Source: Capitulum mitella
Lineage: Eukaryota; Arthropoda; Thecostraca; Pollicipedomorpha; Pollicipedidae
DNA length: 64,000 nt
Assembly (NCBI GenBank): GCA_030062745.1
Contig: CP099839.1
Coordinates: 3,291,001-3,355,000 of the forward strand
Direction of reading: 5' to 3'
This document shows, piece after piece, positions 3,209 to 60,150 of the stretch (within the stretch, counting starts at the first letter, position 1; each line of letters opens with the position of its first letter). The translations under genes and the position numbers were made by a program. The notes below the pieces were generated by a model, which worked only from the letters and a program-made list of their open reading frames with translations, searched no databases and was not told the origin of the DNA.

Positions 3209-3220
3209 GTTGAAAACCAC

Positions 3221-3592: not shown

Positions 3593-3820
3593 CACGGTAA
3601 CGCCCATTACCCATGCTAAGCAATGTAAACACCCACTTCCATATTTTGCCCACTTATCCCTGTGTCTGTGACCGATCCTAGCTCGCTGGTGTCAAGGGCC
3701 ACTTCAGAGGAGATCTTCTCTGGAGCTCGTTTAACCTGCTCCCCGGAGGAATGAGGCGCGACGCGAGGCTCCCGGATTTTTTTTCAACGACGCCGACCTG
3801 ACTCCAGTCGCCCGACTTAC

Positions 3821-3924
3821 CCGGCGACCACTGGAACAAGTTGAAGACGCTGTCGGTCTGGCTGATGCGCCGAAACGTCCCAGCTCCTTCGGGGCGGAAC
3901 TGCACCTCATACGTCGGGACGCAC
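3821..3924 (-). CDS. IDUA: IDUA exon 11
   Basis: The acceptor ACCCGCAG continues phase 2 of exon 10 across a 4.4-kb intron. It encodes [20 protein letters not shown] and VFNLFQWSP, aligning with the C-terminal domain including its conserved Cys and YE-x-QF. A perfect GTAAGT donor follows CCGG at 3821. If that donor is unused, the frame runs to a stop at 3678 with no obvious homology after FNLFQWSP. A further terminal exon was not recognised to the left. Confidence 0.88.
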
Positions 3925-4850: not shown

Positions 4851-4899
<49 letters not shown>

Positions 4900-7900: not shown

Positions 7901-10900
7901 GTTATCGGCCGTCCCAGGAACCCCCTCTCAGACCGCCTGTCTACACGCTCTCTTCTGAGCCGAGCCACGAACTCCGTCACAGTCCCCTGCCACTCATGCT
8001 GATCGCGACTTCCGGCAACGATCCTTTGCTGAATGGATGAGGCTCCCGTGCACGCTTCGCCTTGGAAATAGTTTCCTGAGGAAGCTCGTTCTGCGGCGTC
8101 CTGTGCCAACAAAAAAGGTGCGCAGTAGAACTGAGGAGCAAGAGAATCCTAAAACATAAAAAACATCCCGTCCATGGTGACACACATGTCCCGTGAAGAC
8201 TCCCCCGAGGATATTCACGTCTCTTCACACAGAAATACCCAGTCAAAACCGGACGCTCTGTCACCACGGCCGACCCTCCGCCAGCGACGGTCCTCAGCCA
8301 GTCGTGGACGGACAGGTGGCAGACGCCGCCGGCTCCCACCTGGTCCGCAGTCGGGCGTCGTTCCAGACCACCAGCACGGCTCCGACCGTGACGCCGATCA
8401 CGCGCAGACCGGCGACGCGGCCCGGCCGCCGCCGGCTGACGGCGCAGGCGTGCACCAGCGCCACGCCGGGCTGCCGCAGCGCCAGCTTCAGGTGCAGCCC
8501 GGCCGCCGGCACCGGCCGCGGCGGCCGGAGACGCCTCACACCCTGCCGCAGGGAGGGTGCAGTGAGGCCGGCGGCGTCGCCCGCACCGGTACTGGGCAGG
8601 TATTGCACTTTTGGGCGGAGTCGAGGAGTCGCTGATCTAATCGACAAGAATGGCGCCACGTAGCTTTACTTTTGTAGGCTGCATGCCGACAGAGATGGAC
8701 GGTAGCGTAGATCGAGTTTGGGGATTACATGACAGTAGACTAATGCCACATCTGAGCCGATAACGAAGTAAAGCAATGACCTTGTTTTGGCATCTCTACC
8801 TGCGCCAGACGCATGACACCCATTTGGCTCCTGGTGGGGTACACTGGCTGTCCCTGCATCAGCCAGACCCGGTGCGGGTTCGTCAAGAGGTTGTCCATCA
8901 CGTACACGGTGTACATCCACTTATGCCCTGGACAGCACGAAGTCGGGATGACGCAGCGGCTGCGACAGTCACATGGCTGAGCCGTTCTCACTTCCGGTGA
9001 AAGATTACGAAAACGCGGTGCAACGACAGGAAAACACATGCTGTCGTCACTGGGACGTTTTGAGTTAGCGTCGCTACTTCTGTGCCGGAAAATGCATGAC
9101 ATCACGAAGTAAGCGCCAAGCAGGACTGTAGACCTGATGTCACTGAGGACGCCTGCCGACAGTTTAGACAGCTGGCAACGGCAGGCAGCCTTTGTACGCA
9201 AGAATAATGTTCAATTAATCTGCGAATCTGTGGACCGACTGAAGCCGACTCCACCTCTCACCGTTGTTACGTACCTTGCAACTTTGTGACGTTGTAGATA
9301 TGCACCTGGACGGATGCCACCTGGCTGGCGGCGGCCGCAGAGTCACCGAAACTAACGAGCGTGGTCACTGACCTCCCGCGGTCACCAACAGATGGCAGCA
9401 CGTGTAGCGAGCTGGACAGACGCAGTAGTCATTTTTCGCACAGTGAAAAATAACCCAAAAATGTGTAGATAAATGACCGCATGTTCTGGACTCTGGAAAC
9501 GACATAACTCCAAAAATGATCTTCAGACATGTCTGAGGATAACCAGATGCATCACGGATAAGCATAGGCATAAGGTGCGTATCGGACTTCACATAGCTAT
9601 TTAAACAGGAGAACCCTATGTCAGACGCCGGAGAAAATCGACTGTTTACACTATTCTGGTTCTCCTGAAGGTGCCACTGAATTTTTGCTACCTTTGTTTT
9701 GGCCAAAAACTTTTCAGATCGCAAGGTTTCGTTTGAGTTCCGATTCATCAAAACCAGTCCAGTAGATGTAAAGATTTCAGGGAAACATAGTCAGATTGGG
9801 ATTGAAACGAATTCAGCTGCCTAAAAGTAGGGTTAATGTGGGTCACATAAAGGGTGTATTTACCAGAAAGCATGCAGAAGACGGGTGAAAACGACGATTT
9901 GCAACGTAGAAATCCATTCAGAAAAGCACCTAAAATGTGTAGCCTCCCCGGCGTGCGAACCTTGGCATCTGTTTGGTAAACATCCGAAGCTGCTGGTCGC
10001 CAATCATGGAGAGCAGGGCCATCACAGAGAAGGCCGGCTTCAGGACAAACTCCGAGTGCCGATCGGCAGTGTTGTTCATCTGAAACCTGTCCCGGCATAC
10101 AGTACACGTAACGTCACGGCCTTTTTCAGCGTGCACAAAAATCAGTGAAATTTCGAACTAACCGAGTGCAACATCACATGGTGCCAGTCGAATCCGATGG
10201 TCCCTGCTGGGCATGGGAGTTCCCAGCGCCAGCCCCAGTGGCCCCCGGTCAACCCCAGCGACCCCCAGTCGAAGCCGGCGTGTACCTGGCAAACAGCGTG
10301 CGCTGCTGGAAGTAGTGCGGGTGGTAGTTGAGGAAGGCGTTGTCGTTGCTGAGCAGGCGGTAGTTGGCCCCGTCGCTGCCGGCCGCCCGCCACTGCTGGT
10401 GGATGATGACGTTGGAAGCGATCATGGCGGCGTAGGTGACGTCGGCGCGCCAGCGTCGCGCCTTCCACCAGCCCTTCTCCGGGTCGGCCTCGCTGGCGGG
10501 TAATCAGCGCGTCGTCGTCAGCTGATCGGGGTGTGCGTTACCATGGACGCGGCGTCAGTGGACAGAGCACGGCTTGACCTGGACTTGTGTTTGCTTTGGA
10601 AGGTTAATGTTTCAGGGGGCCACTTAGACATATCGCGGTGTTGACCTGAATATTATAAAACAAAAAGGCAAGTGGGTTGAGGGCCGTCTGATGGCCATAA
10701 TACAGTTGATTCTAGAAGAAAAAATGGTACGTTTTCCAGACCCCAGTTCCGCCAGAGCGCACGTTCGTCTCGTGCTCCCCACCAGAACCAACAGTCGCCC
10801 CGCACGACAGCCCAGCTCTGCGCCGCTCCGCGGGCTGCAGGCGGCGCCGCTCACTCGTTGAAGACGGGCAGCCGGCGGAGGCGCGGGAACCGCCGGCGAA

Positions 10901-28467: not shown

Positions 28468-31400
28468 CTGTGGGAAAGACCGACCCATAACCGTTACCAT
28501 GGAAACGAATATTTTCGTCTGCTGCTGTGTCCTCTATACTGGCACTGCGGATAAACTCAAATGGATGGGTTCCAGAGCACAAAATTTACAGGACGAAGTT
28601 GTGCACTGGCGACACTCGGGCTAGTTCATAAAGATGTGACTTATGTCAGACATACCATTACTTCTAATCCCTCTGTCGCGATATTTGAAAGCGCCGAAGC
28701 AACAAGAGTTGTTTCATAGGTTTTAACTACCGAGATAGGGCCTTAGATCCTTCGTGGAACTGTAAGAACTTGACACAGTTTCTATGCTCATGTCATGCAG
28801 TGAGCTTCAGTGAGTTGGATAAGAGCAGTAACAAAACTGAATAATTGCATGCGTTGAGACAGCTGTGGAATGTGTCAGTGTGTCAATTTATCAAGGACAT
28901 TTTGTTCACGATTTTTCTTTTTTTTGCTTCGTGGCTTTCGTTAACTTGTCTTCAGATGAATGGGAGGCAAGCCCTTTTATATTTGTTGGATTTTAACATA
29001 TGGGAGTAACATTAGCTGCAGTCTTGCCACTAAAAACGCTGCATTAAGGCAGCATCGTATCATATCATATCACCACAGCAGATCTCCGTTAAGTTTGGGG
29101 GTAAGACCGAGCCTTTCATAATTTTCGGAATTTATTCTGGGAAAACGTTGAAAAGCACAAGCACAAATCGTTGGGGAGTAGCCAAGTATATTTTCGAAAC
29201 GTTCACCAAGGTGGAAGATTCGCTCTAAATGTGGAGCATTTTTGTTAATCCCATACGGGTACGAATGTATGTTAAGTTAATGTGGCAACGATCTTTTTGA
29301 GATGGCTTCTTTCCATGATACACCACTGGCAAATGTAAAGAGTGTCCAAAGCTGGTGAAGCCGCTACCTTACCAGTGCGGGTTACCTCACCCTTCCGAAC
29401 CTAATATAACGTGAGCAATGATCGGGAGAAATATTTTAGAGCATGAATTATTGTTATCAAAGTATGTGTGTATATGTGTGTGTGTGTCCGAGTTAGTTGG
29501 TAGAATATTGGTTTAAAGAACACCACAGTTTCAAAGCCAGAGAGGAGAAAAGGGACATGGGATATGACATGGCTACAACGACCGTGAGGGGGAGAATCAG
29601 GGTAACGAGATTGGTCCAATGATCAGAAGCATAGGCACCGGAACGGGGAGAGAGGACTGGGGAACCGTGCACCCCTCAACCTGCGGAATTTAAAATTAAC
29701 CCTCTGGCATTGCATGGAATGCATGGAAAGAAATGGAAAGAAATGCCTCGAATAGTAGCCGGCACCCCCACCCCCTTGCCGGAACACGTGCCGGAATACG
29801 TCCTTAGTGATCAGCAGTTACGTGGCACCTACCGCCGTCATAGAAAATGATGATACGAGATATACGAGGCACGAGAAAAAGATGATACGAGGCAATAATA
29901 CGAGATGCCGCCGTGATAGAAAACGATAACACGGAAAGGAAAGACGATCGATGTAGCGTAAGACGCCATAAACCCAACCCACCGTCTTTCATCGCTTGTA
30001 AAGACAAACAGGAGAGAAACAACAACAAAAAAACTTAAACAACGGAATACAGGCCAGCTCTGGTAGTTCCCATGTGTAGTTTCCCTGCTGTTATGTTACG
30101 TCCACCTACCCGACTTCGCTTCAGCCACGGGCCGCCCGACTCCCGGAGGCGAGCGTTAAAGTGTGTGCAGTTATTGGCGCACAGTCATCAAAGACTACCG
30201 AAATCAGTCACACTGGAGGTGGAAATCACCACGCTGTCGAACGGATTCCGCGTGTCCTGACTCACCTGTGATAAGACTGGGCTTGCTCCAATAATTCACC
30301 CAAATGGGCCCGAAGTTTCGCGTCTACATTGACCTCACCGTGTTTCCGCCGAAACACAAAACTCCCCTCGACATGGCCACCCCTCGCCTCTCTTCCGTTT
30401 TCAAGCACAGTGAAAGAGATCTGGCAGCCCTGACCATTTCGTTCGTGGCAGACAGTGCATCGTGGATGAAAGGGAGGCGACTGCGACTTATTGACGTCGA
30501 AGCATTTGCACCATGACGCCGTGCTGGATGAAAGACGAATCACGTTCTTGGTCGCCGAGTAGCTCATGCAGGTCGGACGTTGGCAGGCCCTCTCGGCGTC
30601 CGTCTGCGCCAGGAACACCTGGCTGGCCGGCACGGAGCTGAGCAGGCAGATCCCGGTCTCCTGCACTCGCCCCGACAGCACTGAGCCGTTGGCGGCCACC
30701 ATCAGCAGCTGGTTCTCCCCGTCCAATACGATCTCCTCCACGGCGTCGATGCTGATAGGCGGAGACTCGGACGGACACGCCGGTGCAGTGGCGTTCTCCT
30801 TCCACAGGCGCGGATTGGCGGTGCTCGCTGTTGCCTCGGCAGCCGAGGTGGTTGTCGAGGTAGTGGATGTAGTGGATGTCGTGGTAGCGACAGCGGTGGT
30901 GGGGGAGGCTGAAGGTTCGCCTGTAGTTGCGGAATTTTCGGCGTGGGATTGTGTGGGAGAAGTCGCTGCCTCCGTGTTTGATATGTTGGAGGTGTCGGTG
31001 CTCTCGGCGGCAGACTGCGTGGACGTAGCTGATACAGCTGAGGTGGAAACTCCACCATTTAGATTGGCCGATTCAGTCGTGCACTGAGTGGAGGCGACAT
31101 CAGCCGAGTTGGTGGTGGTAGCGGGGTCTCCCTGTGTAGTATATATTGCGCTAGCCCTGGTTGTCAGCGTAGTGGATGCAGACTGAGTGGAGACGACATC
31201 AGCCGAGTTGGTGGTGGTAGCGGGGTCTCCCTGTGTAGTATACATTGCGTTAGCCCTGGTTGTAAGCGGTGTCAGCATAGTGGATGCAGCCGGCTCTGAG
31301 GTGATAGCAGAGATCGTTGGAGAAGTGCCGATTGATGTAGTATCGGTGGTCTTCGTGGTTACCGAGGTCGCTTGGACTGTGGTGGACACTGCAGGGGGCA

Positions 31401-31649
31401 TGGTGGTACTCCCAGCCGGCCTGACCCTCTTCCACAGTGTCCTGCCAGTCGGCAGGCTGTCCCAGTACTGGCATCGCTCGGAGTTGACCGCGGAGGGAGT
31501 GAGCCGGGCTTCGGGCTTCAGGCTGAAGCCCCGACAGGTGTCGTTCCGAGCGCAGCCGGCGGCACATCGCAGGTCACTGGGCTCGCCGTCGCCGCCGACG
31601 AATAGGTCTTCTGATAGTGCCACCGTGCATGGGAACGCCAGGAGAAGTC
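28272..31649 (-). CDS. Secreted mucin-like protein, at least two exons, unidentified
   Basis: Not assigned to a known family. The long exon (31649-30266, acceptor TGTTTCAG, donor CACAG/GTGAGT) starts within a hydrophobic segment (LLLAFPCTVA), so the signal-peptide start is in an unseen upstream exon. It then encodes a Cys-rich module (CAAGCARNDTCRGFSLKPE to ERCQYWDSL), PAN/apple-like in look. About 190 residues follow, dominated by Thr, Ser and Ala with repeated segments (near-identical repeats at 31100-31155 and 31190-31245), typical of O-glycosylated mucin. A second Cys-containing module comes next (ACQRPTCMSYSATKNVIRLS, WCKCFDV, CTVCHERNGQGC). The second exon (28467-28272) joins in phase. 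Open frames on the opposite strand are shadows of the repeats. Confidence 0.72.
28468..30265. other. Intron of the mucin-like gene
   Basis: Short GT-rich tract at 29464-29490. Repeated GATACGAG words occur around 29850-29910. No additional in-phase exon was recognised, although one could be hidden here. Confidence 0.4.
30266..31649 (-). CDS. Mucin-like protein, long exon
   Basis: 1384 nt, phase 1 in and phase 2 out, with consensus splice sites on both sides. Only one frame stays open. The Thr/Ser-rich centre contains an internal tandem duplication, including ATTTNSADVVSTQSASTT and its partner ATTTNSADVASTQC. Confidence 0.75.
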
Positions 31650-34540
31650 CTGAAACATTCCTCGTAAGATCAGCTATGTCAGCCTGTCGGTGAGTTATGC
31701 GTCACAGTGCTGGAAAACCACTCTAAACGAGCGCTCCTTAGGCTGAAATTCGTAGCTCGTTACGGTTGCAGCCTGAATAATTAATCTGAGATTGAACGTT
31801 AATACGCCCGCTGGTGACAATCAAGAACATAACATCCGTGGCTGTGGACCACACTTCCCTTCAGCCTCTTTCATGCCCTGATCTTATCTGCCGAACGTGA
31901 CCGCATTTGGAGCAGTGCGTCCGGAGAATGGTCTCACGTGTCCCAAATCGAGGAAACCTAGGTCGGCTCGATCGAAGCCAACTGAGTTTCAGAGTTGAAT
32001 ATGAAACACTGCTTTATTTCCAGATTTGTTCAGTCGCACCCCGATTTCAAGGACGTTTATTCTTATGCTTTCGTGTAGCAAGTACCATAACTGACCTACG
32101 TGAGGTCTGACGAGGTAACCCAGATTCAGAAAATGTCGCATTTTGTCAGGATGGAGCGAAACAGAATCTGACGGGTTGTTAGTCGGTGGGGCAAAATCTA
32201 AGCTTTGTATCGTACGCAGTACACAAAATGTTAGTTTCGTAAGAATATCCGAAATGCATGTGATTAGTGTAGTCAGCTGTAACCATTCAGGGTCAGCTGA
32301 ATTCAGCAAACAAAATTCACACGGTATTTTATTGATTTTTTTTCTGGTTAGATGTGCAGAAAAGAGAGGACGTCTTATCTTCACCACTTCACCTTGTTAT
32401 GTTGCTGACAGGCGTATGATGCTATATATGCTATAATGCTCACGATGTTAACCTCCTGGTCGTGTTGCATATAAGGTTGTAGATGAAGGGACATCGAACC
32501 ATTATTACCCAGACATTAACGGATCCAGATCACGCGCTTGGGGGAGGGGGGATCTTCATCCGTGCAACGAAACCTACCCCCCAATGCTTACTTCTCCTCG
32601 GATTTCGGCCGCTTAGTCTCGCCGGTTACGAAAATTAACAAGTCTATAAAGAAATCTTGCTTTGGAGAAAATCACCTGCAATTTATGCGGAAAGGGAAAA
32701 GCCAGACGACGAGCTGGTCCCGGGCTTTTCCACGAAAAGGGTCACGGTCCCAAAGCCCCCTGGATCTGCCAGTGTATCCAGATACTGCCCAGAATACACT
32801 TGTACTCGTCATGGTTATCAAGTTGCGCACTTTCCTCACTTGAACATCTACTGCTGATGTTTTCGTTTAAGTCCATGGCGTACACCGATCTATATTACAT
32901 TTTTTGTTCCGGCACGAAATGTTATCTTGATTTCGATGCGTCGCTGGCGATTTCGACCATCTGCAGGAAGAAAATATGAGGACAGCTTCGATTCAATTTC
33001 TAATTTCGTCGCACCCTGCAAATCTGCAAAGCCGACGTTTTCAAGATGAGGATTTAAAAGCCATTGACAAGAAGACTGAAAATTAGCACATTTTTCATCG
33101 CTGCTCTCTGCGAATTGTATAACAAAATGAACGTTCACACGAACAGTTACCACGAAAACTTCAGCTTCTTCGCAGCCGTAAGTAAAAATGCTAGGAATTG
33201 CCCAAACTTTACCTACATGTTTGCTTTAGAGGCATTTATTACTTAACAGAGTGTATTTTTATCGCGCTATTTATGCAGATTAGCTTAAACCCATAATCGC
33301 TTGCTGGAACCCCTTATCACCACTTGGAAATATTTGTCTCGTAAGGCACCGAACCGAAAATGGAATTGTGGTCATTGCTCGGAAGTACGTAAAAAGAGTC
33401 CTTTGCGTAAAAAACGTTAAGGGCACTTCACGTAACGTACACGTAGCACTTATTTCTTTGAACATGTAAATAAAAATGCCTCATTTTAAATGGAACAGTA
33501 AATGTCAAAAATATAGCGACGAGAACACAAATGAAAAATCAACAACGGTTTTCTTCAGTCGAACAGTGTAGGCGCTAAATGTCCTCACCCTCATTGCGGC
33601 TGCATAAATCAGAGAGTTCAGTTTGCTGATCGGTGTCGAGCCGCCCCAGCAAACCAGCAACAACGGACCTTAAAAGCATGTATTTTCTAAGCTGTCTGCA
33701 CTCTGCTGTGTGCATCTGGGTTGTCGACACTCTGCAGTCAGAAATGTCAAACACAGACATGTTTCCTCCAGATCACATTTAAACCCTTCAGAAACTACGG
33801 CGAACCATAGCGTTAGTGAAATGACTGTAAAGACTAATATCGATTGCAAAAACCACTATCACGTGAAGTAAGCGAAACATCAAAAACGGCAATGAAAAGG
33901 CCACTCTTATAGAACGGGAGAAAACCACTGGAGCTTCAGGAAAAGAAGTGCAGGGGTAGATCCATCCCACTATGCTTGCCAGGATCATGCCACTTTGGGG
34001 TAAAACGCTAGAACAAGTTGTGTTATCTGCTCTTAAAAAGACCTGAAATGGCAGTAATGACGAACTATTTCCTTCTTAGCATCAAAAGAAAACAGCCTTT
34101 AAATGTGAGTATTTTTCCCTGAAAAATTAGTCGTTCCCCGCCCAGTACTCGAAATCGCAGGAGGGCTTCTTTGTGCCCTTCGTCTTAGATCCGTCCCTGG
34201 GAATGGCACGAGAGATTTGCGCTGTCCATTTGAAGCCACAAGAGGAACAAAAGCAACATAAAAGTGGGTGTCGCAAATGAGTCGGAAGCTAAAGACAAGA
34301 ACATCGCGTACACGTTTGACCCTGGTTCGTCCAAAGCATGGGTGGAGCTTTTGGAAGTTTGCTTTTGGAAGGCCCGCTCCCCTCCCCCAATATTTGGGAT
34401 TTTTAACGTTACGTCTGTGGTGACGCATGGAAGGAATGACCTCAAAAACATGAGAATTAATCAAAATTAGCACGCCTCCCTTCCTCCGTCCCTCCCTAAT
34501 CATTTTTGCCGAGCTCCGCCCCTGGTCCGAAGTGTGCAGT
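31650..34540. other. Upstream of the mucin-like gene; no supported gene
   Basis: No exon carrying a signal-peptide start in suitable phase was found. Fragments of family C-like text occur near 32515-32600 and 32690-32780 (CCCCTGGATCTGCCAGTG) and around 34150-34520. Confidence 0.4.
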
Positions 34541-46733: not shown

Positions 46734-46943
46734 CAGGTGTATCGATTTGTATTCTTTCGAGGGGCCCTGGCCGACCCAGTGTTTGTTTGGGCCCCTCCAA
46801 TGTTGGTTTGAGCCCCTCCATTATTTTCTGCCAGTTTTGAAGAAAACTGAGCAAAAATAACGAAAGAAACGGCCGCAATAGATAAAAGATTGGCAGAAAA
46901 TATGGAATAGCGCATAAAGTGATGTCTTTCCTTCTGTCAGCTA

Positions 46944-46996
<53 letters not shown>

Positions 46997-47164
46997 GGAA
47001 TATACGCGATTTTTTATTTGAAAGATAGTTGCCAAAACTCAAATATTTCCATTGATCAAACTAAAGTCGCCTAAATCCATTTAGAAATCCACATTTGGGG
47101 GGAGGTTAGGTTGTCGAGCCCACGGCTCGGCCCACCCAATCATTTACAGAAATTGATGCCCCTG
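46734..47164 (+). mobile_element. hAT-type MITE, family B, copy B4
   Basis: 431 bp, ends CAGGTGTATCGATTTGTATT and ACAGAAATTGATGCCCCTG. Tandem signature motifs are at about 46770-46822 and (AT)n at 46947-46992. Flanks TAGATCTT and TAGGCCTT agree at 6 of 8 positions, consistent with an old target duplication. Confidence 0.88.
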
Positions 47165-47214
47165 TAGGCCTTAGTTCTGTCCAACAAAGAGGTTGGGTCG
47201 CCCGAAGCGCGGTA

Positions 47215-47640
47215 TTAGGTTTTATCTTAGTAGAGACCGTGTGTTGGGTTCGTTCTGCAAAAGGTTCGCACGGGAATGGTTCGTGTGAGAAAAGATTCGT
47301 AAGGAAAAAGCTCTTGACCACAGGCTCGTTAACTTAAGGTTCATATCGAAAAACATTTGTATCGGGAAAGGAATGGGCCTAAACTAATAACCTAACCTAA
47401 CCTCTTTTTTGACGAAATCAAGTCCAATCGCACCCTCAATAAGCCTGCGACTTCTAGTAGCGCCTATACCGCGCCTCTGGCTTAAACCGGGAGCCAACCT
47501 TTCCTGATGCAAATCTTGTCTGACACGACCTTTTCCGATGCGAACCTTATGTTTTCAGACCTTCACACTAACCTACCCGTACGAAGCCTTGACTTACGAA
47601 CCCTGGTCCGGTTACCCTTACTGGGTCGCTGGAGATAACG
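47215..47640. repeat. Foldback-type repeat G1 with AACCT core
   Basis: The left side has repeated AAAAGGTTCG / AAAAGATTCGTAAGG words. The centre has AACCTAACCTAACCTC (47386-47404). The right side has the complementary-type words CGACCTTTTCCGATGCGAAC and ends CTGGTCCGGTTACCC. The same layout is seen at 53510-54475. Confidence 0.65.
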
Positions 47641-48000
47641 CGTGGTCGGCCTATTCCCTCCTTTACCCACAAATGGTGAGTCCCATTTACTAGCGGGCGG
47701 ACCGTTTCGTGTTTTCAGCAGTCGCCGTCTGAGCCGTTACTGTCGTTCGTGACGGGTGATTAGGGTGAGTTGACGCTTGCCCGTAAGAGCGGTGAGTCCG
47801 CTTCCAGGATTTTTGGGTCATTTAGGACGTAGATGAGGGAATTCAGGACTTTCATGAGTTGGGGTTTCATTCACAGAGTTGATAAGGCTGTAAGTAGCTC
47901 ATCCGACTGCATTGACTGCATTTGCTGGACTGCAGACTGGGGTAGGTTGCAACAAGAATGATCGTGCATCGTTAATTGCAGGTACATATCTTGGTGCACG
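47641..48000. other. Unassigned, ordinary CpG content
   Basis: Last CpG-containing stretch before the CpG desert; no feature recognised. Confidence 0.4.
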
Positions 48001-48127
48001 ATTGGGCATCTCTGGCATGTACCACAGTTGTTGAATGTACCACCACCAATGCACACCAAAGGAGGGGACAGTCAATGAAAAACAGCAAGCAGCAGGTTCA
48101 GGGCAGTAAGTATTGCATGACCTGTGC

Positions 48128-48302
48128 CAGGGGTTTCAGTTTGTATTCTTTTGAGAGGACCCTGGCCCACCCAATGTTGATATGGGCCCACCCAATGCTG
48201 GTTTGGGTCCCCCACTATTTTCTGCCAGCTTTAAAGGGAAATGAGTAATAGTAATAAAGTAATGCTCAGCCTACCAATCATGTGAAGAAATCAACACCGT
48301 GG
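48128..48302 (+). mobile_element. hAT-type MITE, family B, copy B5 (internally deleted, CpG-eroded)
   Basis: About 175 bp, starts CAGGGGTTTCAGTTTGTATT, carries the tandem signature (48165-48210), lacks the (AT)n centre, and ends GAAGAAATCAACACCGTGG. Flanks ACCTGTGC (48120-48127) and ACCTGGGC (48303-48310) match at 7 of 8. Both terminal TCGA words of the family have become TCAG or TCAA here. Confidence 0.85.
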
Positions 48303-48310
48303 ACCTGGGC

Positions 48311-49858
48311 ACTGTGTCAAGAGGAACACAATCTTTCTGAGATGATGCAGTGAACTACCCAGGCCAACAAGGGGTTGCATACAACACAGGGATAACCTGC
48401 ATTCTGTTGGGCTCCAGGCACATGAGTGGTCACAGTTTGCATTCTGGTGAACTGGTGTAGATGTGACCAGTGTGCCATAATTATTCACCTTTCATGACTG
48501 TCATTGACACCATCCTTGTCACCTCTATTTTCCATGCCAGAGAATATTGCCATTCTGAGGCAGCTGGCACATTGGTGGTGGTTTGTGTGTCTGGATTATG
48601 GTTTAATATTATTTGAGAAATGAGAGTAGTGTCTGGTATGGTGAAAAAGAGCATGCATTATTCTGTTCATTGTTGGTAATTATATAGATCAGTGCACAAA
48701 TTAAATGGAGTATGAAGTTAGCTTAATGCCCTCTTTTTTCTTATGTGTCCCATTATGTTCACTGGTGCATAAGAAGTGTTTTGTCAAAATGTTCCAGTCA
48801 ATTGCTCCTGCATATCACCAGTGTTTTGCTCATTTTATTGCAAGGTCACTTTTCTAAGGATATTCAGTAAAAATGAAATAAAGTCTGGAACTTTTATTTG
48901 TGCAGAAGTTAAGTTCTTTTTCTTACTGCCTGCAGTAGCTCTTCACTGGAGAGGAATAAAGTAATGTGGGCAGGCACTAGTAGTTACTGAGAAAGTTTTT
49001 TATATTCCATTATTGGCAGATTGGAAATATAATTGGAGGAAGGCATATTTTATTCTCAGCAACCATAGGAAATGCAGACTAGGAAATTGCAAGGAGTGTT
49101 CATGCAACAGTGCATGGAACTTTCTGTTTCATAACCACTTTATTTTATAATATTTAGGGAGAAAGTGCATTATCCATGTACTAGGATCAACTCTGGAAAC
49201 AACCATAAAATCAGTAACTACCGTGCAAAGTATTGCCATGGAGTGTTCAGTGGTTCCAGTGCCATTTTTTGTAACAAAATGGTTTAAACTAAGGAATCAA
49301 AAGTGTTTGGCAGTTCTTGCACCAGCATATCTTCAAAAGTATGAAGTGAACCTAAATTGATTGAGCCACTGAAGTGCATTGCATTCTCAGTAGAGTGAAT
49401 GAAGTAAAAACCAGATGGATCAGTTATGACTGTTTTATCTTTTGGATGAATGATGGATATGTTGTATAGTGTTCTGCTCAGTCACATGAAGTTATCAAGT
49501 CCTCATAGGTTGGAGGCAACATCTGTTTAGAACTCATGAGAGGACTCAGCTTTCCCACAAACAGAGTTCATTTTGGACCAGGCTGGTTTGTTTCTTTTGA
49601 CTTTTCATTTGATTTGTCTCTGCATTCTGACATCTTAAGGTAAAAAGTGGTATGTTGTGTTGCAAGAGAGAAAACATACCCTTTTTTGGTCTTAAGACAA
49701 TAGATTGGTCATGTCATGTGCCAAGTGAAAACAACAGTCACATGGTTATGGAGTCTGAGGATTTTTCAGTAAAATGTAGTGTAGATTGTTGAATGTAATT
49801 TTCGATTAATTTCCAGTGGTATCCTGTGAGTTTTCATACATGTAGATTTTGGTGCTGA
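48311..49858. other. Upstream region of MUTYH
   Basis: CpG-poor, AT-rich, no repeat element recognised. A promoter or non-coding first exon is likely here, but no TATA box or clear start could be singled out. Confidence 0.4.
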
Positions 49859-50060
49859 ATGTGTAACTTCTGCACAGAAGGCTGTGTTGGAATGACTGGT
49901 TGCCCTGCCAAACAGATGCCAGGCATTCATGATGCAACAACTTCACATGTGGTGTGGTTTCGACAAACTCTTCTCAAGTGGTATGATCAAAATAAAAGGT
50001 CTCTGCCTTGGAGAGATATTGCTGCAAAAGAAGAAGATGCCAATGTCAAAGCATATGCAG
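49859..50060 (+). CDS. MUTYH: MUTYH exon 1 (first recognised)
   Basis: Encodes [20 protein letters not shown] and AYA, ending GCAG/GTGAGT in phase 1. The first 20 residues are not conserved. An acceptor-like TTCTGCACAG at 49877 leaves open that coding starts in an earlier exon. Only one CpG is present in the exon, unlike all later exons. Confidence 0.85.
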
Positions 50061-53000
50061 GTGAGTTTGTTGATTTAACCCACGCAATGGAAGGGGGTTT
50101 CGCACTAATGCGCACTGGAAGGGGGGCACAAAAGTGCTCCCCTTCCAGTCCGGAAACGGAAGGAGCTAGAAACTGCATTGATATGGACAGGGTAGGGCTA
50201 TAACGATTTACATTTTCTGCAGTGTTCACGACCCTAGGCCAGTATCTCCAAGGTCAAACGGGATCGAAAAGGTCAACTCTGAACACTTTCTCGGCCCGTC
50301 CAGGCCATTTCGTACGACTTTTCGAACGAAAAGGGAAAAGGGTGATTGCTTGGCCGTTAAAACGTGGAATACGGAATTCCCATTCATTTGGCATCTTGAC
50401 TTAGGATTTCGGGTCGACGTCAGGTCAAGTTATTGACCTATAGCGTCATTTTTTCATTTTTTGTTGATCAGATTTCGAGCAACACGGGATAGCTTGAGCG
50501 TAAATATGGGCGCTACACATATTTTTGGGGGTATTTTCAGTGAAGGTAGCTAACATCGGTACACTTGGCCACTTGCAGCGTTTAGATTTATTTACTTCTG
50601 TATATGTATATATGCATATACATGTGAGTATTAATGTGCCAGCGTATTTTTAGTAGGGTCTTTGAATGCATATTTCATACAAATTGACATATTGTTAATC
50701 AAATCTGGTCCAGGTCACAAATAGTTGCCCTTGACCTTTGATGACCTTGACCCTGTGTTGGAAAACTACCATTTTCTGGTGTCAAGGAGCATTAAAAAAT
50801 TTATATTCCAAGAAAAATTTTGTACTCCAAAATGGCCATTTGCCCCTTCCCCAAAAAGACATGGGTATTCCTACTCAACCAGAGTTTGAAGTTGCCCAGC
50901 ATTCCCCCTCCGCCCGGTTGATGGTTTATCATTCATACTCGGCCGCTGAAGTACAACCCGTACCCAGGGCCACCTGCCTTCCACCCCCCTCCCCCCCCCG
51001 GTCAGCGACTGCTGGCCTACCATGTAGACCCAGGAAACTGGTTTGCCCCCTCCCCCCCAAACGGAGCCACTGGATCCGCCCCTGCTGGCCACATATGCTT
51101 GCGAAACACCTAGTTAGTCCATGTTTCTCACATAAACGCAAGGCATTTTAGACTCCAAAAGAGAAGTACTCCGACACCAGGATTTCACCAGGAAGAAAAA
51201 CCAGATTTCCAACACTGCCTTGAACAGAAAATGACCCTAGTACGCATACGCTTATCCATGTGTGCAATCGTGTTTTATTAGGGTCTTTGAATGCATATTT
51301 CGTACAAATCGACATTTCGCGAAGCAAATCTGGGCCACGTCCCAAAATATTCGACTTCGACCTTTGATGACCTTGACCTTAACTGACCCTGATATATGTA
51401 AGTGTATCAATGTGCGCACACATGTTTTCATTAGGGTCGTTGAATGCATATTTCATACAAACCGAAATGTTGCGAAGCAAATGTGGATCAGGTCACAAGG
51501 TGTTTGGCCTTGACCTTTGGTGACCTTGGCTCTTACGGACCCTGACTTTGGTCTTGGTACATCCATCACTTATGCCCAGATGACGTCGCGTGATTGCGTT
51601 TAAATGGTAATCTTAGTTAGAACGCTGGTTCTTTCACAAAGTTTCCATTTGTCAGCGAGAGCCGTCGTCCTCGTTATGTTTGCTTAACTTCAAATGCTTA
51701 AAACTTCAAACATTTCCGGCCGATTTCCGGTTTTTCTGCGTCAGTCGACGAGTTATTCAATTGCCATAAATGTCACCAAATAGCAGCAACTAGCTCCAAC
51801 GGGGGGGGGGGGGACACTTCTTCCAGTGCGCGTGTTGATGGTAATATACGAGTATGTGTGGAACTTTGCAGTCCATTTCTTTGAATCAGCTTGTCGTCAG
51901 AAGAAGATGGCTTCAACACTCGCACGGGTGTTAAAGCCATTTTTTGACAGCCATCTAAAGCCGTCTATCGCACCTTTTGACTACAACGCGCTCGGGTTGG
52001 GGAGGGGCGGTCATTTTGGCATCCCTAAGATCTCGAAAACTAACGGGACTAGATACATGAAATTTGCAGCGTAGATGCAGAAGGAACTCTCTTGTTTAGA
52101 ACTTTGGCCTTTTTAGGGCGTGACCTTCAAGATCACATTAGGTCAGATTTGGTGCGGCTCGCCAGACCTTTTCTTGTACCGCGAAAACCGTTCGTCACAG
52201 TTACAAAATGTTTGGGCGATTTTTTGTAGGCCACACAAAACTACAATAGGTAGTGTATAATTCGAGATGCTTGGGTCAGTACTTACATTTAAAGTAGTGC
52301 TTAAGCACGACATCCAGCCATATGGCTATAATTTCACGAAGTGTCACAAAGTGTCTTATGTCGTGTTTTATGGTATCTTGGGGTAAATTGTATCGCTGAA
52401 TTCGAATTTCGCAACCAAACATACCTCACGAATCAAATTTCTGCCACCAAGTGCACCCAGGGTCATCTTAGGTCAACCTAGTACATTGATCTGTGACCTC
52501 GAAAAAGTGAAAATTGCGAAAATGTGCTCCACGGAATCAGCTACCGTCAATCGGTACAATTTTGCCACTAAAGTATTTCGCACTATTAAGTTTTAGGATA
52601 CTTACACGCAGGCACTCCGAAAACTAAACTATCTGACCCATTTCCTTTTGACACCTATCTGCCTCAGCGTTTACTCTGCCTAGGTAATTTTGGAGGCTGA
52701 ATTCGGAATCAGCGTAAAAAAAAACACCTTTGAAAGTTGTTGCAGGAAAGGGTGTACCCAAGTCAATACAGTTCGTATCAGGGTGATGACCTGAGATGAC
52801 CTCGATGAGACCAAAAGTATCGGAATGTTTGTTCAGTCATCCCTGACATTGTTTGGTACCATTTTGTCCGTGAATTAGGCACCGAACAAGAAATTGGCTG
52901 CGTTTCATCATTTGGCTTTTACAGAAAACGGGTACGCGCGAGCACATTTTTGGTCATCTCTTCGTGACCTTACCTGATATATGAAACTTGGTACAGCGGT

Positions 53001-56000
53001 AGAAGGTGAAGCGACCTTGTACATATGTTGCGATTGTTTTTGGCTGAGGTGATTGGAAAGTTGTATGTTCGGAAATGGTTTTCGACTTTGACCTCGATTT
53101 GACCTCATGATCTGGCCTCAGATTGGCCAAACTATTTTGGTACTTTTTTCAGTTGGTTATCTGTTTACCCATGAAAAGCTTGAAAGTGTCATTTTTGTAG
53201 AAGTATATATTTATGAAAGCAGTTTGAAGTTTACCCTAAAATGGCCATTTCTAAAAGCCATGACCTTACTTTGACCCGTTCTAACTTGGTGATACTGAAA
53301 GACGTTGATATTTTTTTAACACCAAGAGATCCGCTTTTCGGTTTTGCACAGCTGTGCCAGATTTGCTGTGGATGCATCGGACCGTTTAGGACCTATTCCG
53401 GAAAACCTCAGGGAGGTCAAATTGACCCCTCATCCGGGCTGCGTGGTGCTGAAAAATTTCTTCTGGAAATTTGGGATCCGCCACGCCCGTACTCGGGTCT
53501 AGGACCAGGGCTCAGAAATCAGGTGCTCATAAGGGAAAAGGCTCGTAGCCAAAGGCTCGTAAGCGTAAAGTTTGTATCGTTTAAAGGCCTCACATCGGAA
53601 AAGATTCGTAATGGGAAAGCTTCTTACAACAAAAGGTTCTCAAGGAAAAGGTATCAGAACCAAAGGCTCGTAAACAAGGTTCGTGTGGGAAAAGGCTCAT
53701 TTAGGACAAAGTTCACCTCGGAAGGGTATTAGGCAGAAGATCTTAACGCAAAAGTTCGTACGGAAAAGTTCGTACGCAAAAAGGTCTTAAAAAAGATCGT
53801 ATGGGATGAAAGACCGCATGGCAAATAAACCGTTCACAAAAGATGGCATGGCAAGTACAGTCGTAAGGCAATAAACATAATGCGACTTGAATCTAATCCC
53901 ACCTGACCTAGCCTAACTTAACCTAACCAACTAACATAACCTAACCTTGACCTAACCTCCTGCGGCAGATCGGTAAATACGCTTACGGCAAACCGAGTAC
54001 TATGCTTGCGGCCAACCGATTGCTATGCCTACGGCAAACCGATTACTACGCCTTCGGCAAACCGATTACTGTACGTGCGGTAGACCGACTTTTACACCTA
54101 CGGCAAACCGACTGGCTGGTGTGATCTTTTGTCTTTTCAATCTTTATCCCGTATCTTAATCCCATACGATCTTCCCCAATACGATCTTTTGCTTATGATC
54201 TTTTTCCGATACGAACCTTGGCCGATGCGAACCTTTTCCGATACTAAGCTTATATTTACGAACCTGTAGTTACGGACTTTTTTCCTTACGAGCCGTTTTC
54301 GTACGAACGTTTTTCATACGAACCTTTTGCGGTACGAACCTTTTCCTTTGCGGACTTTTTGCAATGCGAACCTTTTCCGATACAAACCTTATACGTGCGA
54401 ACATTTGGTTGCGAACCTTTTCCCGTACTAGCCTTTTGCCTGCGGATCTTAGTCCGGTTACCCCTGCTCATGTGATGGTTAGACCGATGAAGTGTGTTGC
54501 TAGCTATAGCATTGCTCACGCTAGCTCCTTTTGGTGCCGACATGTCAATTACGGCATTTTTGTCTGAAATGGTGATCAGCCACCTCCTGCACAGCACGTG
54601 TGCATTTGATTTTTTTTCATTACCAGTTGAATTTCAGTCTCAGCTTTAGTATTCTTTGCGTTTCAGTGTGGACGTCGGAGATCATGCTGCAACAAACCCA
54701 GGTGGCTACAGTGATTGACTACTTCAATAGATGGCTTCAGCGCTGGCCCACTATTCAAGACCTGGCCGAAGCTGAGCTGGACGAGGTCATTAAGCTGTGG
54801 TCAGGTCTAGGGTACTATTCCCGAGCCAGACGTCTTCATGAGGGCGCCCAGAAGGTAATTGCGTAATGCTCCCATCCAGACGAACATACCATATGCTCAG
54901 CCCGTATGAAATTCTCAGTATGCGATTAGTGTTCGGAAAGTTTTGTTGGTGTGATACCCATATACAGTCATCATTTTCCTCTTGGGTTTCTGTGGTCATC
55001 CACCACTTTACCATTTTCTTTGTGCGTTTTATTTATTCGCTTCCCCCTCGTACGTGCCGACGCTCGTAAATATTGAACCTGAGTTTCAGAACATATCCAT
55101 TTTGACTTGAGACTTCGTTGAAGGATGAAGCCAGCAGCTTATGACTTATCTTGCTTCTCGTTCGTGGGTTGAGTAGTTACTGGCGGATCTCGAAGGGGGG
55201 GGGGGGGAGGCGTAGGGAACCCTAGGACCCATTCGTTGGGAAGTGAGGAGTGAAAACAGCATGTCTTGTTTCCGAAATATTTTTCCCCTTAAATGTACGA
55301 CAGTTTTCAAAGTTGGCGAAACTGAGTGGCCAGAATCTGACAGAGATCACCATTTGGAGATTAGTTCGAGTGACACGGATGGAGATCCCCCCCGCACGTG
55401 GTTGGGATCGGCCCTTAAGCGAAGTTTCTGCAGCCGGTGGTGTTCTCCCGTCGCCGGTGTGTTCGCCGTTCTGTGTGCCGTCCGTTCGCCGTCCTGTCCG
55501 CCATCTTGTCCGCCGTCGTGTGCGCCATTTTGCCGGCCCACGGCCGCTGTGACGCCGCCTCGGCCGCCGTCGGCAGGTGTGCTCCGAGCTGGGCGGTCGG
55601 GTGCCGGACACGGCCGACGCCCTGCTCCGGCTGCCCGGAGTCGGCCGCTACACGGCCGGCGCCGTCTCCTCGATCGCCTTCGGTCGGCCGGCGCCGGTCG
55701 TCGACGGTAACGTGGCGCGCGTGCTGGCGAGGCTGCGTGCCGTCGGTGCCGCTTTGGACTCGAAGGTGGGTCCGCCGGCGCGGCTGTGTGGATATCGCCT
55801 CACGTCGGGCCTGCCTCAGACAGCACTTCTGGAGGCGTGGCTTTGTTGTCGTAAAATTCGCTATGTCTGGTCGTAGTTTGTGCCGGAGCCCAAGACATCG
55901 ACGTGCTTTCTAAGAAAATAGTGTTGTGGTGTCAAGTATGCGGCGGGTTTTCACTTGCCTGGAGCGTACAGTTTGGCTATATAAACTCAGCATAAATTCC

Positions 56001-59000
56001 TCAGTCTCGTGTCTTTGTTTTGCGGTTCTGTCGGGCTGTTTTTGTCGCCGGCTGGGCTGTACGTAGTGGTCCGTCGCGGCTGTATCGCGTCCGCCCCGTC
56101 TCACTGACGACGGTGACTGCGGCCCGACAGCCGGTCACCGAGTGGTTGTGGTCGACGGCGGCCGAGCTGGTGGACCCCGCGCGGCCGGGCGACTTTAACC
56201 AGGCGCTGATGGAGCTGGGCGCCACCGTGTGCACGCCGCGGACGCCGGCCTGCGACGCGTGTCCCGTCCGGCGTCAGTGCGCCGCCCGCCGACTGGCCGA
56301 CCGACGCCAGCGCGGTGCGGCGCGTACCGACCGACCGGGCCAGAGCGGTGCGGATGGTATGTCCTCAGTGATGTGTCACGTACTGGCAGACGGTGGCGGG
56401 GGTGTGTGTGGTATGCCCTCTGCCGATGACTGTGACCAAGTGCTGAGTGTGGTACGTCCTCTACTGATTGATTGTGTCAGAGTGGTGCGAGGGGTACGTC
56501 CCCTACTGACTGATTGTGCCAGAGATGTGGATGTGGTACGTCCCCTACTGACTGATTGTGCCAGAGTGGTACGTAGGCAGTGGGGCAGTGGGGAAGCGGA
56601 TAAGAATTGTGTCATGTTCAAGGAATGATCTGCCCTGTTCATCTCGGCATGTGAGGAGGATTTGGAACGTCTGCGATCAGTAGTTTAGGAGTGGGTGGGT
56701 TGTTTAGGAAAACTGGATGCTTTCCGGAACCTGAACGGGTTCCGAATGTCGGCCGTTTAATTCCCAGCTATGGCCGAACAGTGATTCGTAGATGGAAGTG
56801 AAATGGCTATTATCCCTTTCGTTCGCCGCTCACCACCCAGATGGTGTGATGAAATTCTTTGGGAGCTAGTCACCGCGTTCACCCATTGTAGTCATTGTCA
56901 TGTCACCCGTTGTCAGTCCATCAGATCTGTACTCTGAGTCTATGTTGGTAAGACTCATTTTGTAGTGAACCCGTGACGAACCGCTAGTGACAGTATGAAT
57001 GGTCAAGACCAGGCAACTGAAATGCGAGTTTTCGACATTGTAAGGATGCATATTTGCCTTAAACTTTTGTATAGACCTGCAGCGCGTCTGTTACGTCGAC
57101 GTTTGTATGCTTCTCTTGCCAGGCAACAAACGAAAAGCGCAAGAAAATGAAAGCTTGTTAGCCAGGTCGGCAGATACCGATGAGCTTGGAGAAAACAAGA
57201 TCTGTATTGGGCTAGCTGGCCCCATGCACTCGACCTGTGAGCGTTTTATTACAAAATGGGCCCAACATGGACTCAGAACACAGTTGTGTTACCCAGCAAG
57301 ATATACATGAAATCCGTACACATAAATTTGTACGCGAAACGTTTCTTGAACGACTGCTGAAGGGCAATTGCCGTGCATTGCCAATACAGGCAAAACGGAA
57401 TGTCTGAGCAGTCTGACGACTTGTACCAAAAGTAATGGGTGCCCGTCATTCAATGGTATTACCCTTCCATACAACGTGCCATTGGCTTGAAACTGCGTTT
57501 ATTGCATGAGTATGACTCATTTTCGTTCCTTTATGATGTTAACTGGAATGAAAACTCCTCAGAAATATTCATTCAGCTAACAGCTCATGTTGCCAAAAGT
57601 ACAGCGTGTTTTGTATTTGAATGTTATGCTTTTGTCGTACGAAGGATACTTCGGGCTTAGACCTTGGAGGTTTGCAATTTCTTATGATTCGTACACATGC
57701 ACGATATTTGCCGAAGTTTTGCTATAGCAAAGAGTCAGTTTTGAAACGTACATTTCGTTAATCTGTCGCGACCCCGTCGTGACACAAGGACCGCTTTGTC
57801 ACGTTCGTTTCCCCGTCCGTCCGCAGCCGATGTTTTGTCTGTGTAAGTCCCGTGGGACCTCGTCTGCCCACCCGCTTGTCAGTGACGAGCTCCCCTACCC
57901 CCTGGCAGCGGCGGAGGAAGCGGCAACAGCCGGTGACATTGAAGACTGCGCCGCCGACTGCCGACTTTGCCTACCCGTCGGCCAGTGGGAGAACGGTCTG
58001 GGCGTGCTCAACTTCCCGCGAAAACCGCGCAAGGCGGCGCCGCGCGTCGAGCACGAGGCCGTCTGCGTGCTGCATCGCGGCCGCCAGCGCTTCCTGTTGG
58101 CGCGCCGGCCAGACTCAGGTGTGTCCGTCGGCCGCCAGGCGGCAGTGTGTGTCCCCGGCCGCCCTTGTAGCCATGGCCGCTTCGCTGTGATGCGTAGTGG
58201 ATATGCGTTGTTTGTGGATTTTTTAATGTATCGGCGATCGCCTATGTCAGTGAATGGTCCAGACGCCGTTTTCGACGATATGTTGGAAATTCCTGAAGTG
58301 GGAATGTTTGTCTTTCGAACGGCGTTTGAGCTGCTTTGGTCATGACTGTTCGCTACGAGAAAGAACCACCTTGTTGATAAATGGTCTGCGACATTGTTAC
58401 TCCTTGACTTGTGGATATGTCGTTCATGAAGAAGCCATTTCTGGATCTACGAGCCATCGGTTAAGGACCTTATGTCGGGTCTCCTGCGCATAAACATGAC
58501 GTATTCTCTGACCACGCGAATGCGTTGTTCCCCTTCAGGTCTGCTGGCCTCTCTCTGGGAATTCCCGGGCGTCACCCTGTCGGAAGCGGAGCCCTCGGAC
58601 GCGGCGGTGGACGCCGCCCTGCGCACGCTGCTGCCCGGCCTGCTGGCGCCGCCACCAGGGGCGCTGCAGTCGCTGGGCGACGTCGCCCACGTGTTCTCCC
58701 ACATCCGGCGCACGTACCGAGTGCGGGCGGCGGCCGCGGACGGGGAGCCGGCCGAGCCGCCGCCGCCGGCCGGCTACAGCGCCGCCCGCTGGATGTCACG
58801 GGAGGAGCTGCTCCAGGCCGGCATACCGACCGCCGTCCGCAAGGTGCGGCCGCCGGCCGGACGGGGGCGATGTGAAGTTGACGAATGTCGCCGATGAGCC
58901 TCGGGCCGAGGTGGCGGAAACTGCAGGATCGCCGGGCAGGAGTCGCAATAGTTTGAAATATGCTTATCGGGCCTCATACATGGTGGTGGTGCCGTGAAAA

Positions 59001-59548: not shown

Positions 59549-59588
59549 CGGCACGGCGGCGGGCCGTCCGGCGGCGAGCGGAGCCCGC

Positions 59589-60150
59589 GGGGCCGTCCTG
59601 TCCCGCTGTCAGGGTCTGACGGTACCGTCCTGTCCCGCTGTCAGGGTCTGACGGGGCCGTCCTGTCCTGCTGTCAGGGTCTGACAGGGCCGTCCTGTCCT
59701 GCTGTCAGGGTCTGACAGGGTCGTCCTGTCCTGCTGTCAGGCTCTGACGGAGCCGTCCTGTCCTGCTGTCAGGCTCTGACGGAGCCGTCCTGTCCTGCTG
59801 TCAGGCTCTGACAGAGCCGTCCTGTCCTGCTGTCAGGGTCTGACGGGGTCGTCCTGTCCTGCTGTCAGGCTCTGACGGAGCCGTCCTGTCCTGCTGTCAG
59901 GCTCTGACAGAGCCGTCCTGTCCTGCTGTCAGGGTCTGACGGGGTCGTCCTGTCCTGCTGTCAGGCTCTGACGGAGCCGTCCTGTCCTGCTGTCAGGGTC
60001 TGACGGAGCCGTCCTGTCCCTCTGTCAGGATCTGACGGGACCGTCCTGTCCTGCTGTCAGGCTCTGACGGGTCCGCCCTGTTCCGCTGTCAAGCTCTGAC
60101 GGGTCGTCCTGTCCCGCTGTCAGGCTCTGGCTGGGCCGTCCTGTCCTTGT
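59589..60150. repeat. 32-bp minisatellite, about 17 units, just after the MUTYH stop
   Basis: Tandem GCCGTCCTGTCCTGCTGTCA plus GGSTCTGACGGR units starting 41 bp after the TGA, so probably within the MUTYH 3' UTR or immediately downstream. The other copy has about 6 units (681-868). Confidence 0.93.

What the first reader, a model, noticed from the sequence alone, without database searches (positions are those of the whole stretch)
48001..50085. Sharply bounded CpG desert over the 5' end of MUTYH
About 2.1 kb has only four or five CpGs by eye, while the neighbouring intron and later exons are CpG-rich. The first recognised exon has one CpG, exons 3-6 have dozens. The right edge is abrupt, inside intron 1 about 25 bp after the donor. 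Established knowledge: in many invertebrates germline gene-body methylation concentrates near the 5' part of housekeeping genes and erodes CpG. The sequence looks like a fossil of such a methylated domain with a defined border.
Basis: partly seen in the sequence, partly recalled or inferred. Interest (0 to 1): 0.7.

Follow-up and report, generated by a model that had tools for sequence, protein, structure and literature searches.

The report
Methylation scar at housekeeping gene starts
A 2,000-base stretch at the start of a DNA-repair gene has lost nearly all its CG letter pairs, as expected where DNA was chemically tagged for ages in the germline; the same scar sits at the start of several everyday genes in this animal, probably a barnacle.

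Summary
The desert is real and extreme: 4 CpGs where about 82 are expected in window 48000-50082 (o/e 0.05; window 0.97). TpG and CpA are in excess, and simulated CpG decay of other window DNA reproduces the whole dinucleotide profile: the signature of long germline 5-methylcytosine. The gene is MUTYH; its frame crosses the right border.

The own genome (477 Mb, 16 contigs; probably a thoracican barnacle, inferred) suggests a class. Strong deserts (o/e below 0.1, 1.6-3.6 kb) lie at 6 of 9 TCP1-family 5' ends, 1 of 13 spaced 10-kb samples and 0 of 4 cuticle genes. Most later coding exons checked keep CpGs; deserts whose exons could be read lie around intron 1 to exon 2 or 3. DNMT1 and DNMT2 were found; DNMT3 was not seen, but absence is unproven.

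The abrupt right border is the edge of a high-copy repeat about 15 bp after the donor. It kept 24 of 31 consensus CpGs; a similarly diverged repeat inside kept 0 of 3.

Best reading: punctate 5' gene-body methylation, a variant of known invertebrate mosaic methylation. Methylation itself was not measured.

The parts
48000..50074 (.). CpG desert, about 2.1 kb (CpG change-points 47971-48040 and 50040-50082)
   Evidence: 4 CpG vs 81.5 expected over 48000-50082
49892..50060 (+). first recognised coding exon of MUTYH (in-frame ATG also at 49859); donor at 50061; 1 CpG
   Evidence: synonymous recoding of the peptide gives means of 10.5, 19.2 and 11.2 CpGs under three usages, with 0 of 5000 draws at 1 or fewer in each
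48125..48264 (.). dispersed repeat inside the desert; its 3 consensus CpGs are all TG/CA here
47784..47999 (.). stretch between the left repeat edge and the desert, no repeat match reported; 7 CpGs; possible transcription start or first-exon zone (inferred)
47167..47783 (.). dispersed repeat of the left flank
   Evidence: query 268-884
50075..50752 (.). high-copy repeat whose end makes the sharp right border; keeps 24 of 31 consensus CpGs over 50075-50617
50753..51217 (.). insertion nested in that repeat: 4 of 6 other copies (L003, L005, L007, L008) run on almost directly from 50752 to 51216-51218; the other two do not show the junction
51218..51545 (.). continuation of the right-hand repeat family with 153-bp internal repeats (matches seen to 51499, where the query ended; tandem array to 51545)
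54667..54854 (+). MUTYH exon 2, phase 1 join to exon 1, 8 CpGs (o/e 0.58)
55577..55765 (+). MUTYH exon 3, 35 CpGs
56131..56355 (+). MUTYH exon 4 (3' end approximate), 42 CpGs
58541..58843 (+). later MUTYH exon, called exon 6 here (C-terminal part, boundaries approximate, read by motif), 47 CpGs

Best explanation
The block is the mutational scar of a discrete domain of germline CpG methylation over the 5' end of the MUTYH transcription unit (probably intron 1 plus the first recognised coding exon). Methylated CpGs deaminated to TpG/CpA until about 95% were gone; unmethylated neighbours (later exons, repeats, intergenic DNA) kept theirs. It belongs to a class of roughly 1.6-3.6 kb domains at the 5' gene body of constitutively used genes in this genome. 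The left border lies in DNA without a reported repeat match; the right border is where an apparently unmethylated repeat inserted. Shown: depletion, decay spectrum, gene identity, recurrence at chaperonin genes, absence at the four cuticle genes sampled, presence of DNMT1. Inferred: that methylation was the cause, that it acted in the germline, that the transcription start lies at or left of the block, and that DNMT1 maintains it.
For: Decay spectrum: simulated CpG to TG/CA loss on other window DNA (1589 of 3000 draws, those starting at 43-50% GC) puts all 16 dinucleotides of the block within |z| 1.8. Mass balance: reverting 34 TG and 63 CA gives 101 CpGs (98 expected) and GC 44.6%; the two 500-bp bins before the block are at 45% and 50%. 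Recurrence: strong deserts in 6 of 9 TCP1 loci, 1 of 13 spaced 10-kb samples, 0 of 4 cuticle loci, 0 of 6 repeat-copy loci (Fisher 6/9 vs 1/13 p = 0.0066, loci of unequal length). The sample desert (L021) covers an early coding exon of an Exo_endo_phos gene. Position: in L041 the ATG exon has an acceptor-like sequence about 20 bp after the desert; in L035 the desert ends within about 30 bp of an acceptor-like site; L039 and L040, and the partial block of L034, hold coding exons inside. DNMT1. The repeat inside the desert lost 3 of 3 consensus CpGs (non-CpG divergence 12.2%), while the border repeat kept 24 of 31 at 11.2%. Native: the reading frame continues into exon 2, and the inside repeat is a family of this genome.
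Against: No methylation data exist here. Two of nine TCP1 genes (L033, L037) show no comparable desert in the 5' stretch fetched, and L034 is only partial (o/e 0.26). The 20 kb around DNMT1 (L013, L014) have no strong desert either, though its 5' end may not be covered. Between the two MUTYH copies, CpG columns differ more inside the block (3 of 11) than outside (12 of 605), but only 1 of those 3 is a transition, so ongoing deamination is not demonstrated. The transcription start was not mapped. The inside repeat has only 3 consensus CpGs, and its 11 other copies kept only 19 of 33, so keeping 0 of 3 is not strong by itself. One CpG-poor block lies deeper in a gene (L035 4259-4742). Controls are few: 4 of the 150 listed cuticle matches and 13 samples.
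Confidence: 0.88

Rival explanations
1. Foreign or chimeric DNA: the block comes from a CpG-poor genome (for instance a vertebrate) through contamination or misassembly.
For: Sharp borders on both sides and a composition unlike the rest of the window.
Against: MUTYH exon 1 in the block joins exon 2 outside in frame and in phase; the block holds a repeat family found elsewhere in the window and genome; a 99% copy of the locus also has the block; like blocks occur at other genes.
Confidence: 0.02
2. It is a promoter domain methylated in silent cells (as reported for promoters of silent genes in Strigamia and Planococcus, PMC7343188 passages), not a 5' gene-body domain.
For: Most of the MUTYH block lies upstream of the ATG, and the transcription start was not mapped.
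Against: Chaperonin deserts end at or near acceptor-like sites or include coding exons in L034, L035, L039, L040 and L041, so those reach into or up to the spliced transcript; chaperonins are constitutive genes (recalled), not silent ones.
Confidence: 0.08
3. The sharpness is only a matter of age: the domain was once wider and younger repeats inserted later on both sides.
For: The right border is at a repeat edge; a repeat also ends near the left border, at 47783.
Against: The border repeat is about as diverged as the one inside that lost its CpGs (11.2% and 12.2%), yet kept 24 of 31; the left border lies about 200 bp inside the repeat edge; exons 3, 4 and 6 are native and CpG-rich. In seven other deserts 12 of 14 ends are placed within 24-138 bp (the other two 207 and 582 bp; some are limited by the locus end), though repeats there were not checked.
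Confidence: 0.15
4. A CpG-avoiding selective or sequence-composition cause unrelated to methylation.
For: None specific found.
Against: TpG and CpA gains match CpG losses in number, and exon 1 lacks CpGs that synonymous codons would give.
Confidence: 0.03

Closest known systems
Mosaic gene-body methylation of Ciona intestinalis (PMC3827831; passages seen)
   Same: Sperm DNA made of almost fully methylated or unmethylated domains, sharp borders, overlap with genes, dip upstream of the transcription start.
   Different: In Ciona the domain lies centrally over the gene; here the scar is confined to about 2-3 kb at the 5' end and most later exons checked keep normal CpG.
5'-biased exon methylation in arthropods, e.g. 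Planococcus citri and Nicrophorus vespilloides (PMC7343188; section 8 and passages seen)
   Different: There it is exon-enriched and seen as metagene averages; here intron or 5' flank is hit too and erosion is about 95%. [quoted passage not shown]
Housekeeping-gene body methylation in marbled crayfish (PMC6172769; abstract and passages seen)
   Same: Housekeeping genes are a main target; repeats relatively hypomethylated.
   Different: Gene-body methylation there, with DNMT1, DNMT3 and TET; here 5'-restricted, DNMT1 found and DNMT3 not detected.
CpG depletion as record of past methylation in the copepod Eurytemora carolleeae (PMC11706791; passages seen)
   Same: Same inference from CpG o/e in a crustacean.
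   Different: Unimodal gene o/e with mean 0.5 there; here the samples are at o/e 1.0 with isolated deserts below 0.1.

Membership tests
Invertebrate mosaic (gene-body) DNA methylation domain | Strong CpG depletion relative to flanks | tested here: met
   o/e 0.05 against 0.97
Invertebrate mosaic (gene-body) DNA methylation domain | TpG/CpA excess that accounts for the lost CpGs | tested here: met
   97 reversions restore expected CpG; all dinucleotides within |z| 1.8 of the decay simulation
Invertebrate mosaic (gene-body) DNA methylation domain | Lies within a transcription unit | tested here: inconclusive
   Contains the first recognised MUTYH coding exon; several chaperonin deserts contain or abut early coding exons; no RNA data
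Invertebrate mosaic (gene-body) DNA methylation domain | Preference for constitutive, conserved genes over tissue-specific genes | tested here: met
   6 of 9 TCP1 loci, 0 of 4 cuticle loci, 1 of 13 spaced samples; small numbers, gene usage recalled and not measured
Invertebrate mosaic (gene-body) DNA methylation domain | Maintenance methyltransferase DNMT1 encoded in the genome | tested here: met
   best PDB match DNMT1, E = 3e-45
Invertebrate mosaic (gene-body) DNA methylation domain | De novo methyltransferase DNMT3 (not required in all lineages) | tested here: inconclusive
   The 4 PF00145 matches lie at two loci read as DNMT1 and DNMT2; the search with PF17980 (recalled as the DNMT3 ADD domain) did not complete
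Invertebrate mosaic (gene-body) DNA methylation domain | 5-methylcytosine present in the germline at the locus | not testable with these tools
   needs bisulfite, EM-seq or nanopore data
Promoter methylation of silent genes | Upstream methylation with unmethylated gene body at silent genes | tested here: inconclusive
   Transcription starts not mapped, expression not measured; several chaperonin deserts reach coding exons
Foreign insertion or assembly chimera | No continuity of gene or repeats with the host genome | tested here: not met

The most novel reading that the evidence does not exclude
A crustacean genome that is otherwise CpG-normal carries many punctate, sharply bounded 2-3 kb domains of near-total, very long-lived germline methylation, confined to intron 1 and the neighbouring first exons of constitutive genes and maintained by DNMT1 without DNMT3; repeats that land inside decay and repeats at the border do not, so the border is positional and heritable over the time of about 11% neutral divergence.
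Probability: 0.35. Interest if true: 0.72.

Novelty: new variant of a known kind. Interest (0 to 1): 0.58.

Why it matters
If right, each desert is a map of where germline methylation starts and stops along a gene, readable without an assay, in a lineage for which my searches listed no methylome (four papers held all the terms, none on barnacle methylation by title; PMC8821070 has no occurrence of barnacle, Cirripedia, Amphibalanus or Thecostraca in its main text). The erosion (o/e 0.05) is below 0.2, the value I recall for vertebrate DNA (P = 0.0003 if o/e were 0.2), and in a toy equilibrium model without AT bias needs CpG hypermutability of roughly 40-80 times, about 20 times at the upper confidence limit. 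[quoted passage not shown] a DNMT1-only genome with such deserts would be a counter-case and a test of how borders are inherited.

Tried and rejected
1) I first thought the desert resumes after the border repeat, at 50643-50910 (o/e 0.10). Rejected: that patch lies inside the repeat and its nested insertion.

2) Duplicate MUTYH copies as a test of present-day methylation: inconclusive (3 of 11 CpG columns differ inside, 12 of 605 outside, but only 1 of the 3 is a transition).

3) Foreign or chimeric origin: rejected (frame continuity, shared repeats, second copy, other loci).

4) Rfam families at gathering score and tRNA/tmRNA genes: none found. Pfam on ten other window ORFs: no families; one of these ten, 57728-58342, contains a MUTYH-like stretch by eye.

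5) DNMT3 ADD domain (PF17980, recalled) and proteasome (PF00227) searches did not complete.

6) Organism: 16 contigs, 477 Mb, C1 45.52 Mb, compared with Capitulum mitella (16 chromosomes, initial assembly 463.09 Mb, longest chromosome 45.43 Mb in PMC8416341, passages seen). I take it as a thoracican barnacle, probably C. mitella; this is inference.
Full report
Observation. In 48000-50082 the window has 4 CpGs where 81.5 are expected, o/e 0.05 (95% CI 0.013-0.126); the window as a whole is at 0.97. No 2083-base stretch that avoids the block and the N gap has fewer than 63 CpGs. CpA (1.72) and TpG (1.44) are raised, GpT and ApC change little. Change-point intervals are 47971-48040 and 50040-50082.

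Decay spectrum. I let CpGs of other window segments decay to TG or CA with probability 0.95. Of 3000 draws, 1589 started at 43-50% GC; the block lies within |z| 1.8 of these on all 16 dinucleotides. Reverting 34 TG and 63 CA restores CpG to 101 (98 expected) and GC to 44.6%, so much of the low GC of the block (40%) is explained by CpG loss. Exon 1 has 1 CpG; recoding the same peptide with synonymous codons gives means of 10.5 (exon 2 usage), 19.2 (exon 3 and 4 usage) and 11.2 (uniform), with no draw of 5000 at 1 or fewer in each case.

Gene. The joined product of exons 1-4 matches PDB adenine DNA glycosylase 3n5n (E = 8.4e-94) over residues 18-244 and Pfam HhH-GPD. Exon 1 (in the block) and exon 2 (outside) join in frame. 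Exons 2, 3, 4 and 6 hold 8, 35, 42 and 47 CpGs.

Borders. The own genome answered: the window is C1:3291001-3355000 of a 477 Mb assembly in 16 contigs. Of the 40 matches scored for 49000-50500 (of 3279 candidates), one is the window, one a 99% copy, and 38 cover only about 50064-50500 at 82-84% identity: a high-copy repeat whose end, at 50074-50076 in most aligned copies, is the right border, about 15 bp after the exon 1 donor. It runs on to 50752 in 5 of 6 copies compared and, after a nested insertion, from about 51218. On the left, repeats cover 46905-47164 and 47167-47783, and another lies at 48125-48264, inside the desert; no repeat match was reported from 47784 to 48124, though the tool says that its DNA search does not show a sequence to be rare. 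So the left border seems to lie in non-repeat DNA about 200 bp beyond a repeat; that 200 bp still has 7 CpGs.

Spatial or temporal border. The repeat inside the desert has lost 3 of 3 consensus CpGs to TG/CA at 12.2% non-CpG divergence from its consensus. The 11 other copies used kept 19 of 33, lost 7 to TG/CA and 7 otherwise, so 0 of 3 kept is not strong by itself. They are 9 genome copies from the list (a short one was left out) and 2 window copies (3 of the 5 other window copies were left out). The border repeat kept 24 of 31 at 11.2% divergence; six copies elsewhere, which made the consensus, kept 19-27 of 31. This suggests, with few sites, that the border repeat was not inside a methylated domain although it has been there for long.

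Recurrence. With one criterion (log-likelihood of 30 or more) deserts occur in 6 of 9 TCP1-family loci (41 kb), 1 of 13 spaced 10-kb samples (130 kb at o/e 1.00), 0 of 4 cuticle loci (13.2 kb; 4 of the 150 matches) and 0 of 6 loci fetched with the border repeat. Fisher's test of 6/9 against 1/13 gives p = 0.0066, with loci of unequal length. The nine TCP1 loci come (eight CCT-like and one HSP60-like, named by recall). Two other places of that list were left out: C2:23572307, in a 1796-residue open frame, and C7:19461942, below the cut-off. In L039 the desert reaches the end of the fetched stretch and in L038 nearly so, so those lengths are minima. Of the other three, L034 has a 2236-bp block at o/e 0.26, L033 only a 731-bp block at the far end of the stretch, and L037 only a 367-bp block without TG or CA excess. 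The desert of the spaced sample (L021:3626-5995) covers an early coding exon of an Exo_endo_phos gene, neutral-sphingomyelinase-like by recall. Outside this tally: the MUTYH duplicate has the block (L018, 3 CpGs vs 74.1), two strong blocks lie in L015 upstream of the DNMT2-like gene, and the other stretches fetched with them (L013, L014, L016, L017, L019) have none. If 1 per 130 kb were typical there would be some thousands in the genome; with one event this is only an order of magnitude.

Position in genes. In L041 (HSP60-like) the ATG exon follows an acceptor-like ttgcag about 20 bp after the desert end; in L035 the desert ends within about 30 bp of the acceptor-like start of the exon that codes ASLNPVQ; L039 and L040, and the partial block of L034, hold early coding exons (exon readings rest partly on recalled chaperonin peptides). 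In L036 and L038 the desert ends about 100 and 800 bp before the first exon I could read. So the deserts seem to cover the 5' gene body, roughly intron 1 to exon 2 or 3. The first TCP1-profile exons are CpG-normal in 7 of 9 loci (not in L038, 4 vs 6.9, nor in L039, 0 vs 4.8, which lies inside its desert).

Machinery. Four PF00145 matches at two loci: DNMT1 (PDB DNMT1, E = 3e-45) and DNMT2/TRDMT1 (4h0n, 2.4e-21). No DNMT3 among them; a dedicated search did not complete, so absence is not claimed.

Strength of erosion. In a toy mutation model with no AT bias, equilibrium o/e is 0.24 at 10-fold, 0.067 at 40-fold and 0.034 at 80-fold CpG hypermutability. The block therefore implies dense and very old germline methylation, or weak repair of the resulting mismatches.

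Known context. Ciona sperm has almost fully methylated or unmethylated domains with sharp borders over genes (PMC3827831, passages). [quoted passage not shown] Crayfish methylates housekeeping gene bodies with repeats relatively hypomethylated (PMC6172769, passages). CpG o/e has been used as a proxy for germline methylation (PMC8821070 and PMC11706791, passages). The mechanism is therefore of a known kind; the 5' confinement, the inclusion of non-coding sequence and the near-total erosion in a CpG-normal crustacean genome are the variant. I saw no paper on barnacle DNA methylation among the titles listed, and PMC11331182 on C. mitella has no occurrence of 'methylation' in its main text; the held library is not the whole literature.

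Verdict. Methylation itself remains untested.

Noticed in passing
window 43036-64000 and C1:3255001-3285000 (L017-L019): The MUTYH region has a second copy about 74 kb upstream, mostly at 95-99% identity: a recent tandem duplication or an unmerged haplotype in the assembly.
   Followed up: partly
L015 (C4:28751001-28761000) 1-2088, 2898-4861, 7578-8574: Three CpG-poor blocks in a row (6 vs 57, 3 vs 81, 4 vs 38 expected) upstream of, and reaching into, the DNMT2/TRDMT1-like gene.
   Followed up: partly
L035 4259-4742: A short CpG-poor block (4 vs 34.7 expected) deeper in the CCT2-like gene, so not every such block is at the 5' end.
   Followed up: no
window 49592-49734: Imperfect 143-nt palindrome inside the desert (fold z -2.58, 2 of 200 shuffles as stable); possibly an old hairpin element.
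   Followed up: partly
window 50643-50910 and 16163-16500: Small CpG-poor patches outside the desert; the first lies in a repeat with a nested insertion, the second overlaps a repeat copy and TGTGGGC-like sequence.
   Followed up: partly
window 49892-56355: MUTYH exons jump in third-position GC from 0.30 (exon 1) and 0.63 (exon 2) to 0.89 and 0.87 (exons 3 and 4).
   Followed up: partly
window 59588-60147: Minisatellite-like tandem repeats just after the end of MUTYH, seen as many offset matches with the duplicate copy.
   Followed up: no
window 30265-31701 (-): 479-residue open frame, Thr/Ser-rich and mucin-like by eye; no Pfam family.
   Followed up: partly
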